Below, one piece after another: positions 59,210-64,000 of a stretch of 64,000 nt of DNA. Both the position numbers and the translations under genes were made by a program. Location of the stretch: assembly GCF_000787575.1 (NCBI RefSeq), contig NW_012236519.1, positions 781,937 to 845,936 of the forward strand, in the 5' to 3' direction. This DNA comes from Acytostelium subglobosum LB1 (Eukaryota; Evosea; Eumycetozoa; Acytosteliales; Acytosteliaceae). Every line of letters starts with the position of its first letter. Position 1 is the stretch's first letter. The notes under the pieces are model-generated. The model worked only from the letters and a program-made list of their open reading frames with translations. It did not search any database and was not told the DNA's origin.

Positions 59210-60547
59210 TTATTTGTTTGAATTACTGATTGTGTGAGTGAAATAATCAATAAATGGGGAATGAACCAAAGAATCAATTGAAGGAGAATGTAACCTTGAG
59301 AGGTAAATCAAAACATGCCAAAGAATGAGTCCTGGAACATCTGATGATATGTTGCCATTGCTGGAGCTGATACAAATGATCCGAGGGGGACCACTCACAA
59401 CCTGAAGAACTATGTTATTGATCGATCTCTTTCTACTCTTGGTTATAATACGTAACTGGCCAGCTACACCATCGATGGAAAAGAACTTGGATGTAAAATT
59501 ATTACGATCCGGTCGGTAAGAAACAGAACCATAGTATCTTCTGGATGCCCTGACTTTGACTTTGTTGTTTGAGTAAACCAGAGGCTTTACTACATTAGGA
59601 ATCTTTAGAAGAGGTTCCAAAGGGATGAGTGGATAGACTTCTGGATGTGTTGGGACGGGCTTCAAGAAAGGCATCTTGGATATCATATCCAGGGTGATCG
59701 AGGCATACCTTACAACCAAACTCCAATCCTTAACAACACTACAGACGTTGTTGGTAGCGTTGACTGGATCCAGGACACGACGACCATTGATAGGACCAGC
59801 CACATTCTTCCAAGTTGACTTGAACCTAGCGCTCCAATTAATGTCAAAGGAAGGAGCAGCAAGTTGTTGCATTACAGTCTTGAATAAGTCATTCAACTGT
59901 TTGGTGCTGCCCAATGTCTCAAACACCTTCTTGGATATCAACTCCAAGAGGTATGAACTGGGCTGGTTCTTCTCCCGCTTGGACCACCCCCATATAGGTA
60001 ACCTTGTCCAGAGCTTCACCATTCTGATCAGGTCCTTGCCCTTGGCGGAGGTATTTCCTATGAACTGGACTTGGTCATGGGAGGCGGTTGCATGGGCATA
60101 TGGCAGCTGAGTCTTTCGGTTCAGTGTAGTGTACCACATTGATCTTTGAAGTGCTTTGCCATCAACAGGAGGTGGTGATGGCAATATGTCAAACTTGACA
60201 CCTTTATAGGTGACCTCAATACTTCTGAAGTGTATTTCGATCTGGCCTGATACAGGGTCCCCAACCGTCTTTGAATGCTCACTCTCCTGGACATTGGAAA
60301 ACTGGGGAGATGATGACAGGGCACTGTAGAGTAGAGCGACGTATTTCTTCATGTCTCGAGATGTGGGCATCATTCCGTAGAATATAACACAGATGTCCAC
60401 TTCATGTCGATCGGCACAGTTGGTACCCTTGCCCATTGAACCGCCCTTGAATGTCTCAGCTGGAGCAACACTCTGGAATGGTACATATCTCATTAATATA
60501 AGATTTAATGACCTTCTTGGTTTCTTGTATAGGACGTATGTTGACAT
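59210..60547 (-). CDS. OAS-like nucleotidyltransferase (CD-NTase superfamily)
   Basis: 445 aa, no intron visible. Residues 35-55 read GGSMGKGT...HEVDICVIF, the Pol-beta-type nucleotidyltransferase motif as in 2'-5'-oligoadenylate synthetases. A third acidic position is seen at KFDILPSPP (Asp120). Further OAS hallmarks are KDLIRMVKLWTRLP followed by PSSYLLELISKKVFE, and a PVNATNNV turn in the OAS1-C-like helical domain. Such enzymes make 2'-5' or cyclic oligonucleotides on sensing nucleic acid. Oddly, the first metal pair is Glu-x-Asp (E49, D51) instead of Asp-x-Asp. The last ~60 residues look like spacer-derived sequence, and the stop codon overlaps AATAAA. It lies 81 bp downstream of gfm2's start and next to the viral module, so it may be host or cargo. 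Confidence 0.72.
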   Translation of the reverse strand: MSTYVLYKKPRRSLNLILMRYVPFQSVAPAETFKGGSMGKGTNCADRHEVDICVIFYGMMPTSRDMKKYVALLYSALSSSPQFSNVQESEHSKTVGDPVSGQIEIHFRSIEVTYKGVKFDILPSPPPVDGKALQRSMWYTTLNRKTQLPYAHATASHDQVQFIGNTSAKGKDLIRMVKLWTRLPIWGWSKREKNQPSSYLLELISKKVFETLGSTKQLNDLFKTVMQQLAAPSFDINWSARFKSTWKNVAGPINGRRVLDPVNATNNVCSVVKDWSLVVRYASITLDMISKMPFLKPVPTHPEVYPLIPLEPLLKIPNVVKPLVYSNNKVKVRASRRYYGSVSYRPDRNNFTSKFFSIDGVAGQLRIITKSRKRSINNIVLQVVSGPPRIICISSSNGNISSDVPGLILWHVLIYLSRLHSPSIDSLVHSPFIDYFTHTISNSNK

Positions 60548-60686
60548 TGATCGTGTGTGGATAACTCATCGCCGCTGGCTTCGCAACATTACGCAGCTGG
60601 CGCTGCTTCATTTCATACTTCCAGATTCTTCTCTTTATAGTTTTATATACTTCAAAGTTATTAAAAAAGGTATCTGTATCAACAAT

Positions 60687-60785
60687 GTAGAATTGTAGTA
60701 GAAATAGAGTTTAGAAGTTCAAAATAATAAAAATAATTAATCCTAAATCCAGGAGGTAATTTTCCTAATTCTACTACAATTCTAC
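60687..60785. repeat. Palindromic-end unit, copy 1
   Basis: A 99-bp unit bounded by GTAGAATTGTAGTAGAA (60687-60703) and its exact reverse complement TTCTACTACAATTCTAC (60769-60785). The interior (ATAGAGTTTAGAAGTTCAAA...) is AT-rich and not self-complementary. The preceding ~25 bp (AAAAAGGTATCTGTATC) also resemble those before copy 2. It looks like a tiny inverted-repeat element or a processing/terminal structure. Confidence 0.85.
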
Positions 60786-60848
60786 TTTGAGTACCTGTCA
60801 CCGCCATAGCAGTGAGCATGATGGAAAAAGAGTATGTGTCTAATCAAT

Positions 60849-60948
60849 GTAGAATTGTAGTAGAAATAGAGTTTAGAAGTTCAAAATAATAGAATTAATT
60901 TAATCCTAATTAAAGAGGGTCATTTTTGTAATTCTACTATTATTCTAC
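60849..60948. repeat. Palindromic-end unit, copy 2
   Basis: Same left arm GTAGAATTGTAGTAGAA (60849-60865), the same following 22 bases, and a right arm TTCTACTATTATTCTAC (60932-60948) with two mismatches to the perfect complement. It lies in direct orientation to copy 1 with a 162-bp period and ends 37 bp before the stop codon of the packaging ATPase. Confidence 0.85.
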
Positions 60949-60985
60949 TTTCGATTCATGTTAGCGCTGTAAGTTAATTTCTATA

Positions 60986-61828
60986 CTAGTTGACAAGAAA
61001 ATTGGTATTAAAATCGATCCTGTAATCATCACCATTGCGAGAGATGTAAAAGAAATGATATTTCTCTTTGGTCGCTATCTGATACATCTTCATGAACGTT
61101 AGTAATGATACCGTCAAAGACAACTCGTCATATATTATCTTAAGAGTGTCGTCATTGATATTTTTGAACAATAATACATAATCCAGGTTACCTTTGCGAA
61201 TAGAGGCCGCAGTGTCCTTCCATGATTGGGTGCTAATAATAATTTTAGAACTGAAGTGCCTGTGGATCTTCATCAACTTGGGGATGGAAGGGTCCTTTAA
61301 CTCGTTGCTCAGGTCATCAAAAATAATTATATATTCTGGAGCAACATACATTGGCTTGGCAGGTTCTTTTGGAGGTGGCAGAGCGTATGGCCCGATCAGA
61401 GGATAAGACTTGATCATTGGGACAGAAGGGTCTCTCAATGGCATTTTGTTGGGATCGCCAGGAGAAACTTGAGGACTAGCCAGTTGTTGTAAAGAAGCAA
61501 TAAATTCATCCAATAAATTAATCTTGCCATCCTTGATGCTTGTGTATGTTTTAAATTCAATCCCACGTTTGGTCATGTCATCCTGGATGGCCACCCAACT
61601 GAGATCATTGTTTACAGTGGCGCAGAATATTATCACCTTGGTGTTCTTGCCTGCACACTCATCAATTATCTTCTTGATGGTTACAGTTTTACCACTGTTC
61701 TTTGGCGCACATATCAAAATGTTGGCATTGACCTGGTTGAAGAGTTTGGATCCTTTAATATTTTTTGGTTGTTTAGGTAGTTTAATTGGCTCTACCTCTA
61801 CATCATTTATTGTTTGTAGCTTGATCAT
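60986..61828 (-). CDS. A32-like DNA-packaging ATPase (FtsK/HerA clade) of a Polinton-like element
   Basis: 280 aa, no introns. The Walker A motif is APKNSGKT (residues 41-48) after hydrophobic NANILIC. Walker B is IIIFDDL (167-173). The Gln-containing sensor motif IISTQSW (197-203) and the downstream IRKGNLDYVLLF are characteristic of the A32/Polinton packaging ATPases, which pump DNA into preformed icosahedral capsids. Length is at the short end for this clade. It sits 19 bp downstream of the small virion-like gene and is the last gene of the module on this side. Codon use is AT-ending and lacks the GC preference of the conserved host genes. Confidence 0.85.
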   Translation of the reverse strand: MIKLQTINDVEVEPIKLPKQPKNIKGSKLFNQVNANILICAPKNSGKTVTIKKIIDECAGKNTKVIIFCATVNNDLSWVAIQDDMTKRGIEFKTYTSIKDGKINLLDEFIASLQQLASPQVSPGDPNKMPLRDPSVPMIKSYPLIGPYALPPPKEPAKPMYVAPEYIIIFDDLSNELKDPSIPKLMKIHRHFSSKIIISTQSWKDTAASIRKGNLDYVLLFKNINDDTLKIIYDELSLTVSLLTFMKMYQIATKEKYHFFYISRNGDDYRIDFNTNFLVN

Positions 61829-61847
61829 CTATATTATTTAGGTAATA

Positions 61848-62246
61848 CTATTGTTGTCCCCCATACTTGACAAACTCTAAAGCAATTGTAACAGCAACCG
61901 CCTCTTTAACACGTCCTCCCTTCTCATTCACACATTCAAAATAATAATTTCCTTGAATGTATCTTCCTGCTTTGTTCAAGAACTTGTAGTTAGGGGAAAG
62001 GAAACATATCTGCTCTGTGCTACAATACAACACGTTGTCAGGAATCAAATTGGATCTTATTTGAATTAGATTGGTGGTATCCCCTCTGTACATAACTTCA
62101 TAAGACTTGACAATAATTTGGTCTGGAACAAAATCAACATTTATTGGTACAGAGATTCTTTTATCAACAGGAGGGTTCTCTCCATCAGCTGGAAAAACAA
62201 GATTGACAAACACTGTCTTTATGCACATTTCTTTTGAGTATCCCAT
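61848..62246 (-). CDS. Small beta-rich protein of the capsid module
   Basis: 132 aa, no introns. It is dominated by alternating hydrophobic strands (KRISVPINVDFVPDQIIVKS, VAVTIALEFVKY) with a NLIQIRSNLIPDNVLYC centre. Such compact beta proteins with a PDQIIVKS-like phrase accompany capsid genes in Polinton-like viruses and adintoviruses and may be a minor capsid or penton-type protein. I am confident that it belongs to the module by position and strand, not of its exact role. Confidence 0.55.
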   Translation of the reverse strand: MGYSKEMCIKTVFVNLVFPADGENPPVDKRISVPINVDFVPDQIIVKSYEVMYRGDTTNLIQIRSNLIPDNVLYCSTEQICFLSPNYKFLNKAGRYIQGNYYFECVNEKGGRVKEAVAVTIALEFVKYGGQQ

Positions 62247-62264
62247 TTATATTAACTACCAGAG

Positions 62265-62292
62265 ATTTAATTGGAGATTGCTCCAATTAAAT
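62265..62292 (-). terminator. Perfect hairpin after the capsid gene
   Basis: ATTTAATTGGAG (62265-62276) and CTCCAATTAAAT (62281-62292) are exact reverse complements around a 4-base loop. The hairpin lies 19 bases after the stop codon of the 330-aa capsid frame and 19 bases before the next start. In mimivirus-type and virophage transcription, 3' hairpins mark the polyadenylation site. A comparable role is inferred. Confidence 0.6.
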
Positions 62293-62310
62293 CAGGCTTC
62301 GCGAGATTAT

Positions 62311-63303
62311 TTACACCAAAACAAGGCCATTAGGTGTGATGACCAGCTTACGTTTGCACACCACAGTTGATTGATGTGTCAAGTTGGTATTTTCGCTGAG
62401 GAAACCAATGAAATCCCATTTCTGCTCACCAAGGTTGAGATCAATACCAGTGATAGCGTTGTCCTTGTTGAAGTTGGAGGTGCCGTCGCCAAACTCCTCA
62501 ATCCAGCACCAGTTCCTGTTGTGGATTCTTGGTGTCAATAGTGACGAGTCTTTGAGGATCCATCGCAGTGCCATGTAATCGTCGTTAAGGTTCAAATAAT
62601 AATCATATTGCATTAACCTGTTATTGTTGATATTTGTGTAAAAGTGATCCAACTTGGTGTTTCTCCAGTTATTGTTGTAAATGGCTGTATTAGCTGCAGT
62701 TTGTGTTAGGAAAAGACTGTGATAGATCCTCTCCAACGTCATACCATTTTGTCGATTGACTCTGAGAGTCACCGATTGGTTCTGTCCAGTGAGCGCTGCT
62801 TGGTAAGAGTACGAGTAAGGTATCATCAAAGAGAATCCATCTGGACTGAAAATCTTGGTCTGGAGCTCATTGACAATCGCGAGGTTCTTTTCCACTGCCA
62901 GATAAATCGCCATGTTTGTGACATTAAATGCTGCCGGTGCGGGCAATGCAACTGGATTGGTTGTTGGGATTGGTGATGGGGGTGGTTGAATTGCTGGTGA
63001 TGGATCTGGGAGTGCTGCAGGTGGATCAGCAGCGAATGCGATATTAGCGAGCTCTGACCAAACGAATCTTACCAATAATGTCTCGTTCAACATGATGTCT
63101 TTGTCAACACAGAGAATTGATTCATAGAGTTCATTGAAAGGGATTGTTACAACAACATTGGTCTCACCGCCAGCGCCATCCCCAGCAAGTAAATACCTAG
63201 GCTCCACATAAGGGACTGCTGCTTCCTCTCCAGTGTAGTTGGGGTTGTAAACCATTCCAGCAGCGTATGAGTTTGGTAGTTTGGATGAAAGACATGGGAT
63301 CAT
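62311..63303 (-). CDS. Major capsid protein, C-terminal part (double-jelly-roll type)
   Basis: 330 aa. The text continues the fold begun in the upstream overlapping frame. It has strand-rich segments (VVVTIPFNELYESILCVDKD), a Pro/Ala-rich loop (residues ~95-125), and a second barrel region (YYLNLNDDYMALRWILKDSS, QKWDFIGFLSENTNL) near the C-terminus. The start ATG overlaps the stop of the upstream frame as ATGA (63300-63303). Together the two parts would be about 465 aa, a normal size for a Polinton/adintovirus-type capsid protein. This suggests that one gene has been split by a frame change or is expressed in two pieces. Confidence 0.65.
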   Translation of the reverse strand: MIPCLSSKLPNSYAAGMVYNPNYTGEEAAVPYVEPRYLLAGDGAGGETNVVVTIPFNELYESILCVDKDIMLNETLLVRFVWSELANIAFAADPPAALPDPSPAIQPPPSPIPTTNPVALPAPAAFNVTNMAIYLAVEKNLAIVNELQTKIFSPDGFSLMIPYSYSYQAALTGQNQSVTLRVNRQNGMTLERIYHSLFLTQTAANTAIYNNNWRNTKLDHFYTNINNNRLMQYDYYLNLNDDYMALRWILKDSSLLTPRIHNRNWCWIEEFGDGTSNFNKDNAITGIDLNLGEQKWDFIGFLSENTNLTHQSTVVCKRKLVITPNGLVLV

Positions 63304-63707
63304 AATTGATCGCTCGTCATTCTAAAAGATGCGAATGTGTTTTCTGTCTCGACCAATGGTTTGTTCCTCACTGTCACCATCTTGGCGTGGAGATGGAAGT
63401 TGGTATGATTCATCAAATCCAAACCACCTCCTATATACACCTGGATCTGTCTGAAGAATGGACAAAAGTCAGCAAACATCATTGTCTGTTTGTTTGCCAC
63501 GCCAGGCAGATTGAATATGAACCTAAAGTATGATCTTGACAAGTTGTATGCCTTGGACGGTGGGATCTCAAAGATTGTGTCATTGCCACCAGAGTAAACA
63601 GTTGTTGATGTTGTGCCTGACTGTGGGAACAGCCTCGTATATTCATACTCAGGTTCGGCAACGAGCAGGGGCGTGTAATCTAATTCCTTTGAAACGACGT
63701 TCTCCAT
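63300..63707 (-). CDS. Major capsid protein, N-terminal jelly-roll part
   Basis: 135 aa with an N-terminal segment of capsid type: GGNDTIFEIPPSKAYNLSRS, then FADFCPFFRQIQVYIGGGLD and LMNHTNFHLHAKMV. These resemble the first barrel of double-jelly-roll capsid proteins in Polinton-like viruses. It stops at a TGA that overlaps the ATG of the next frame, so it lacks the second barrel. It could be a frameshifted single gene (a sign of decay or a sequencing error) or a true two-part arrangement. I have not written out any joined form. Confidence 0.65.
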   Translation of the reverse strand: MENVVSKELDYTPLLVAEPEYEYTRLFPQSGTTSTTVYSGGNDTIFEIPPSKAYNLSRSYFRFIFNLPGVANKQTMMFADFCPFFRQIQVYIGGGLDLMNHTNFHLHAKMVTVRNKPLVETENTFASFRMTSDQL

Positions 63708-63730
63708 CTATTATATATTGTAACGATCGA

Positions 63731-64000
63731 TTATATTTCGCTGCTAATCTGGATGGTCTCATGCTCCTTGACCAACAAATAATTAATATATCCTCGTGTC
63801 AGCTCGTAGATGTCGTTGCGCCTGTACAATATCAACGTCAAGTTCATATCGACGCCATTCAAGAAGATCTCGACTCCATCCTTGTCTGTTAAATATATGT
63901 AGAACGTCTTTTTAGTCTTTGACACCAACTGCTTAGAGTATGCCTCCAAGTTGTGATTGGTCCAGTTTACATACGCAAAGTCAGGGACGCCAGCTGTGCA
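63731..64000 (-). CDS. Probable virion structural protein, N-terminus beyond the window
   Basis: The frame is open to the right edge; the visible 89 residues end at 63731. It contains FYIYLTDKDGVEIFLNGVDM followed by a strand-rich stretch (LTLILYRRNDIYELT). The x-L-T-D-x-D-G-x-x-I-x-L-N-G-x-D phrase occurs in structural proteins next to capsid genes of Polinton-like elements, but I cannot name the protein. Only 23 bp separate it from the capsid frame, so the module is compact and continues to the right. Confidence 0.55.
   Translation of the reverse strand, partial: CTAGVPDFAYVNWTNHNLEAYSKQLVSKTKKTFYIYLTDKDGVEIFLNGVDMNLTLILYRRNDIYELTRGYINYLLVKEHETIQISSEI

What the first reader, a model, noticed from the sequence alone, without database searches (positions are those of the whole stretch)
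60986..64000. Capsid/packaging module of an integrated Polinton-like or adintovirus-like element in a dictyostelid
Seen: four or five intronless genes on one strand with only 19-64 bp between them (or overlapping), in a window where most host genes have introns and looser spacing. The ATPase shows Walker A APKNSGKT, Walker B IIIFDDL and the STQ...R-x-x-N-L-D pattern of A32-type packaging ATPases. The next frames look like double-jelly-roll capsid and small virion proteins. Inference: an endogenous or still mobile DNA virus/transposon, cut by the window edge.
Basis: partly seen in the sequence, partly recalled or inferred. Interest (0 to 1): 0.85.

Follow-up and report, generated by a model that had tools for sequence, protein, structure and literature searches.

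The report
Broken Polinton virus-transposon in slime mould
The last 3.4 kb of this slime-mould contig is one end of a virus-like mobile element (a Polinton) whose relatives are scattered through the same genome; this copy has lost or broken several genes and is likely inactive, and elements of this kind were already known in slime moulds.

Summary
Real, and correctly read in outline. Window 60553-64000 is one end of a Polinton-type element in Acytostelium subglobosum LB1, cut by the contig end. It holds a 420-bp terminal inverted repeat, an A32-type packaging ATPase, a 132-aa protein of unknown fold, the major capsid protein (MCP) and the last 89 aa of a penton-like protein. The 135- and 330-aa frames are one broken MCP, intact (465 aa) elsewhere in the genome. 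The integrase, fibre-like and core-like genes are missing: the repeat runs straight into the ATPase. Other copies supply rve integrase, Ulp1-type protease, family B polymerase, an SF3-type helicase in two loci, and identical 6-bp target duplications in 4 of 4 copies read at both ends. A close relative of the MCP is predicted to fold as a double jelly roll. The PolB model best matches mavirus PolB and shows no conserved exonuclease site. Intact MCP copies differ at dN/dS 0.04-0.10. Dictyostelid Polintons, one in this species, are in print (PMC3671162, PMC4642659, PMC7805220). New member of a known kind; anatomy and copy census are the additions.

The parts
60547..60552 (.). TTGATC, the 6 bases outside the element end: candidate target-site duplication, second copy beyond the contig end
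   Evidence: Position of the repeat end; 4 of 4 copies read at both ends have identical 6-bp flanks. The second copy for this element cannot be seen.
60553..60972 (.). Terminal inverted repeat (420 bp) of the element; starts GTGTGTGG
   Evidence: 31 matches in the genome; aligns with both ends of the C21 copy, 386 of 420 and 345 of 419 bases identical; end motif shared by five elements
60664..60788 (.). First of two direct repeats inside the terminal repeat
   Evidence: 85.8% identical to 60825-60951
60825..60951 (.). Second direct repeat inside the terminal repeat
60973..60985 (.). Deletion junction: terminal repeat joined to the sequence just behind the ATPase gene; core-like, fibre-like and integrase genes missing
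   Evidence: Similarity to the C21 terminal repeats stops at 60972 and similarity to the C21 ATPase flank starts at 60977; the missing genes lie there in C21 and C46
60986..61828 (-). A32-type DNA-packaging ATPase, 280 aa, open
   Evidence: Motifs; 12 of 15 family members match Pox_A32, not the window protein itself; residues of Walker A and the DD of Walker B invariant in 15
61848..62246 (-). Conserved 132-aa protein of unknown fold, presumed virion protein by position
   Evidence: Aligned in 7 copies, 55-95% identical to the window protein; dN/dS 0.06-0.19 in the pairs not saturated; no family match
62311..63303 (-). Major capsid protein, C-terminal frame (330 aa) of a frame-broken gene
   Evidence: Covers residues 133-465 of the intact C21 protein at 98%
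63300..63707 (-). Major capsid protein, N-terminal frame (135 aa) of the same gene
   Evidence: Covers residues 1-135 of the intact C21 protein at 98%; double-jelly-roll fold predicted for a close relative
63731..64000 (-). Last 89 aa of a penton-like (minor capsid) protein, cut by the contig end
   Evidence: 94% identical to residues 189-277 of the 277-aa protein beside the C21 MCP; the label rests on position and sequence pattern only

Best explanation
Window 60553-64000 is one end of an integrated Polinton-type element of Acytostelium subglobosum, a lineage that likely alternates between a chromosomal copy and a replicating, packaged DNA form, and this copy is likely a dead deletion derivative. 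Shown: other copies carry rve integrase, a Ulp1-type protease, family B polymerase, MCP, penton-like protein and ATPase, and four copies are bounded by inverted repeats and identical 6-bp target duplications. Predicted: PolB, with its terminal-protein-like and vOTU-like N-terminal part, starts synthesis at the repeats by protein priming; an SF3-type helicase found in two loci helps it; the ATPase pumps the linear DNA into a double-jelly-roll capsid matured by the protease; the integrase inserts a new copy. Inferred for this copy: the loss of the integrase end and the frame break in the MCP leave it unable to integrate or build a capsid unaided.
Against: The window itself shows no polymerase, integrase or protease, and the second repeat lies beyond the contig end. 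The C21 PolB gave no Pfam match at E<=0.1 and only the C25 one did. No expression, particle or extrachromosomal DNA was tested. The one complete copy read end to end (C46) has stops or frame breaks in integrase, MCP, penton-like protein and PolB, and 31 of 40 PolB places lack the capsid genes and integrase, so activity today is unproven. The frame break in the window MCP could be an assembly error.
Confidence: 0.92

Rival explanations
1. It is a mavirus-type virophage provirus, kept as an inducible defence against a giant virus.
For: PolB model nearest mavirus PolB, no conserved exonuclease site, an SF3-type helicase gene in two loci and an rve integrase: the mavirus replication set as described in PMC11071308 (passages).
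Confidence: 0.06
2. The capsid genes are domesticated: the host keeps them for a function of its own and the element no longer moves.
For: Strong constraint on MCP and penton-like proteins; rows of this species form one clade in both trees.
Against: Intact MCP genes sit in several copies beside other element genes, not in one conserved host locus; the synonymous differences between copies (dS 0.8-3.3) fit diverging replicating lineages. Orthologous positions in other species were not compared.
Confidence: 0.03
3. The contig end is contamination or a free viral sequence wrongly joined to a host contig.
For: The stretch lies at a contig end.
Against: Copies with inverted repeats and target duplications lie inside contigs of 223 kb to 1.7 Mb of the same assembly, and the MCP and ATPase rows of this species form one clade within a dictyostelid clade.
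Confidence: 0.01

Closest known systems
Polintons already reported in dictyostelids (Dictyostelium fasciculatum, Polysphondylium pallidum, Acytostelium subglobosum): PMC3671162, PMC4642659, PMC4409740, PMC7805220 (passages and two sections seen)
   Same: Same host group, one in the same species; pPolB and RVE integrase near an MCP of the VC20 group (PMC7805220).
   Different: In what I saw of these papers there is no copy census, no target duplications for this species, no deletion derivatives and no PolB domain anatomy for it; supplements were not read.
Mavirus (Cafeteriavirus-dependent mavirus)
   Same: PolB model TM 0.69/0.70 over full length, E 1.8e-44; no conserved exonuclease site; separate SF3-type helicase; rve integrase.
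Typical Polintons / adintoviruses of animals
   Same: rve integrase, Ulp1-type protease, pPolB, double-jelly-roll MCP, A32-type ATPase, inverted repeats with 6-bp duplications.
   Different: PMC11071308 (passages) gives polinton PolB as TP-vOTU-exonuclease-palm; here the exonuclease site is not conserved. A 'MELD virus' PolB model is only rank 19 (E 4.2e-7) and an adintovirus capsid model rank 12 (E 2.9e-11).
VC20 group of polinton-like viruses (PMC7805220, passages)
   Same: That paper assigns the MCP of an A. subglobosum Polinton to this group.
   Different: I had no VC20 sequences to compare; the assignment is the paper's.

Membership tests
[quoted passage not shown]
   PF03175 5.4e-6 in the C25 copy, no Pfam match for the C21 one; model nearest mavirus and phi29-type polymerases. 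In sister copies, not in the window. Priming itself is inferred.
Polinton/Maverick | Retrovirus-type (rve) integrase | tested here: met
   PF00665 9.6e-8 in the C25 copy, PFV integrase 5e-6; 4 loci. Missing from the window copy.
Polinton/Maverick | Terminal inverted repeats and 6-bp target-site duplication | tested here: met
   4 of 4 copies read at both ends (C21, C46, C54, C28). The window shows one end; C25 (two stretches), C55, C47, C22 and C26 showed no such end in the stretches read.
Polinton/Maverick | Ulp1/adenain-type cysteine protease | tested here: met
   PF02902 6.6e-9 at the end of a 720-aa frame in C46; ASFV S273R 1.1e-7 for the C21 protein.
Polinton/Maverick | Double-jelly-roll MCP | tested here: met
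Polinton/Maverick | Single-jelly-roll minor capsid (penton) protein | tested here: inconclusive
   277-aa protein beside the MCP; no solved-structure match; not modelled.
Polinton/Maverick | A32/FtsK-type packaging ATPase | tested here: met
   12 of 15 relatives match Pox_A32; motifs.
Typical polinton PolB (TP-vOTU-exonuclease-palm, PMC11071308) | Exonuclease domain with conserved acidic site | tested here: not met
   In 19 aligned relatives only E308 is invariant between residues 178 and 333. The model aligns with phi29 polymerase from residue 199, so a remnant of the fold may remain.
Mavirus-type virophage | PolB without the exonuclease site, separate SF3 helicase, rve integrase | tested here: met
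   helicase seen in 2 loci, one of them with a stop.
Mavirus-type virophage | Virophage-type MCP | tested here: inconclusive
   Mavirus and Sputnik MCP rank below giant-virus capsid proteins; no tree with named virophages.
Mavirus-type virophage | Dependence on a giant virus | not testable with these tools
   Needs infection experiments.
Adintovirus | MCP and PolB closest to animal adintoviruses | tested here: inconclusive
   Adintovirus capsid model rank 12, 'MELD virus' PolB rank 19; no tree.
VC20 group of polinton-like viruses | MCP within the VC20 clade | not tested
   Stated in PMC7805220 (passages) for an A. subglobosum Polinton; sequences not at hand.

The most novel reading that the evidence does not exclude
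Dictyostelids carry a still-living virus lineage that joins a mavirus-type replication kit (protein-primed PolB without a working exonuclease, SF3-type helicase, rve integrase) to a giant-virus-like, non-virophage capsid: the sister group from which mavirus took its replication genes, and possibly an inducible antiviral system of social amoebae.
Probability: 0.2. Interest if true: 0.75.

Novelty: new member of a known kind. Interest (0 to 1): 0.42.

Why it matters
The genome paper of this species tabulates one DNA transposon and calls the genome rather static (PMC4334915, passages); here matches to one Polinton-type family fall in 55 joined places, 40 of them with PolB. Constraint on the capsid genes argues that the copies descend from elements that still needed capsids, so a social amoeba that grows in the laboratory may host a virus that can be looked for. 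The pairing of an exonuclease-less PolB with a helicase fits, in a different capsid background, the rule proposed in PMC11071308 (passages).

Tried and rejected
Searches that found nothing: IMG/VR scans with the window ATPase, the C21 MCP, the MCP alignment, the ATPase alignment and protein P0042 (5 of 5 empty) and one scan of prokaryote genomes. Profile scans of the five window proteins gave only weak or chance matches (best, a PHROG terminase family at 1.2e-5 for the ATPase). Solved-structure sequence searches: the ATPase gave none, the MCP profile one chance row at E 0.54, the PolB profile one at 0.35, the penton-like profile none, the 491-aa C46 frame none.

Rejected: that the 132-aa protein is a paralogue of the penton-like protein (profile comparison, probability 0.5%; both profiles are shallow). 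That PolB has no partner helicase: I first saw none, then found an SF3-type frame in C46 and a 32% identical one in C25. That capsid-less copies prove a transposon life: some are cut by contig ends (C45 ends at 889,228). That the repeat joined to the ATPase proves end repair during replication: an internal deletion before or after insertion explains it as well; C54 and C28 have shortened repeats joined to internal sequence too.

Dropped rows: the MCP match at C53:620941 (E 1.7e-4, 31 residues) was left out of the census; the matches were all entered. Twelve stretches were scanned for the exact end motif; six had an end (C54, C28, two of C21, C46, window), i.e. five elements. Window against C21 for the N-terminal MCP part gives dN/dS 0.55, but on dS 0.012. 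Absence from a fold list is not taken as exclusion.

Full report
What is there. The five minus-strand frames exist as described. The window is G000:C43:781937-845936 and C43 has 845,936 bases, so the window ends where the contig ends.

One gene, not two. A genome search with the intact 465-aa protein of contig C21 matches the window's two frames as residues 1-135 and 133-465, 98% identical each. The window copy therefore has a frame break in the capsid gene. Four copies keep an open frame of 463-465 aa: C21, C47, C55 and C25.

The left end. The stretch around the repeat has 31 matches in the genome, itself included. In the four copies read at both ends the 6 bases outside are identical: C21 76987-109250 ATTAAC, C46 977787-995815 CCTTTG, C54 1515549-1520143 AGGACA, C28 135429-140350 CTATGT. 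Repeat pairs within a copy: C46 463 of 485 aligned bases identical, C54 202 of 204, C28 127 of 127, C21 363 of 419. In the window the 420-bp repeat ends at 60972 and from 60977 the sequence is that just behind the ATPase in C21. In C21 and C46 a basic core-like gene, a fibre-like gene and the integrase lie between ATPase and repeat (both 'like' labels are mine, from the sequence). The window copy has lost them.

The rest of the element, from sister copies. Pfam finds rve integrase (9.6e-8, C25 copy), a Ulp1-type protease at the C-terminus of a 720-aa frame (6.6e-9, C46) and family B polymerase (5.4e-6, C25; the C21 polymerase gave no match). The protease resembles ASFV S273R (1.1e-7) and the integrase PFV integrase (5e-6). 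The C46 copy is 18,029 bp between its target duplications, with stops or frame breaks in integrase, MCP, penton-like protein and PolB. A 473-aa frame in C46 matches DUF5906 (6e-17), PHROG DNA primases (5.5e-14) and a solved primase (1e-6); it has Walker-like GVGKGQ and FDE motifs. I read it as an SF3-type helicase; that DUF5906 means this is recalled. A 32% identical frame with one stop lies at C25:101495-102952. Four places have integrase and two the helicase.

Copies and history. Joining matches at most 12 kb apart gives 55 places: 40 with PolB, 26 repeat, 17 protease, 12 penton-like, 9 MCP, 9 ATPase, 4 integrase, 2 helicase; 31 PolB places have none of ATPase, MCP, penton-like or integrase. 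The searches give lower bounds, one insertion may count as two places (C21 does), and several places are cut by contig ends. Pairs of intact MCP copies differ by dS 0.8-3.3 with dN/dS 0.04-0.10 (6 of 6), penton-like pairs by dN/dS 0.04-0.11 (6 of 6); many ATPase and 132-aa pairs are saturated at synonymous sites. Window against C21: dS 0.012 (MCP N-part), 0.081 (MCP C-part), 0.073 (ATPase), 0.229 (132-aa), which hints at mosaic copies on a small sample. The MCP tree (24 rows) and the ATPase tree (36 rows) each put the A. subglobosum rows in one group (100/100 and 100/99) within a dictyostelid group (100/100 and 100/99), with the unnamed environmental proteins outside. So the family most likely radiated inside the host lineage while its capsid genes were under selection. 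MCP relatives share stated contig lengths with PolB or ATPase relatives (17,893; 18,051; 19,038), which suggests, without proof, elements or viruses of similar size in the environment.

What is known. Searches for dictyostelid plus polinton and dictyostelid plus virophage found no paper; polinton plus Acytostelium found three. PMC7805220 (passages) says that 'Polintons' detected in A. subglobosum and Heterostelium album share an MCP related to the VC20 group, and that in two amoeba entities pPolB and RVE genes lie within 10 kb of the MCP. PMC4642659 (passages) and PMC4409740 (passages and one section in part) list A. subglobosum in legends of PolB trees. The genome paper PMC4334915 (passages) holds neither 'polinton' nor 'virus' and tabulates one DNA transposon. 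The kind is known and the species was named; the copy census, ends, deletion derivatives and polymerase anatomy are what this report adds, as far as these searches show. Supplements were not read.

Verdict. Real, ordinary in kind, informative in detail. The boldest reading left open is a living lineage with mavirus-type replication genes and a different capsid.

Noticed in passing
window 59210-60547 (-): Host frame with a 2'-5'-oligoadenylate synthetase C-terminal domain (OAS1_C, 4e-8), starting 6 bp outside the element. A paralogue at C34:316656-317432 aligns only from residue 26 of the window frame and has a longer, different N-terminus, so the insertion may have cut off the gene's 5' part.
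   Followed up: partly
contigs C43, C45, C26, C22, C21 (ends): Element matches lie at or near contig ends (C43 and C45 right ends, C26 and C22 left ends, C21 right end), so the assembly seems to break in these repeats.
   Followed up: partly
L035 (C25:103555-104571 and 107444-108460): Two frames of 338 aa with the same first 60 residues, in opposite orientation, flank a segment with the core-like and integrase genes that is inverted relative to C46: looks like an inversion between two copies of another transposon (Tc1/mariner-like by recalled pattern).
   Followed up: no
L019:2585-4999: Retrotransposon-like frames (integrase and reverse transcriptase pattern, recalled) lie inside the C21 element between its integrase and its right repeat.
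   Followed up: no
C46:986354-988516 and C25:112103-114271: The Ulp1-type protease is the C-terminal part of frames of 720 and 722 aa, while in C21 it is a separate 235-aa frame.
   Followed up: partly
C46:993307-994782: 491-aa frame near the PolB-side repeat with a weak AAA match (0.0052) and no solved relative: unexplained cargo.
   Followed up: partly
P0023 (Cavenderia fasciculata): A 676-aa protein named glutathione S-transferase matches the MCP over 47% of the query: perhaps a gene model that fused a capsid fragment to a host gene.
   Followed up: no
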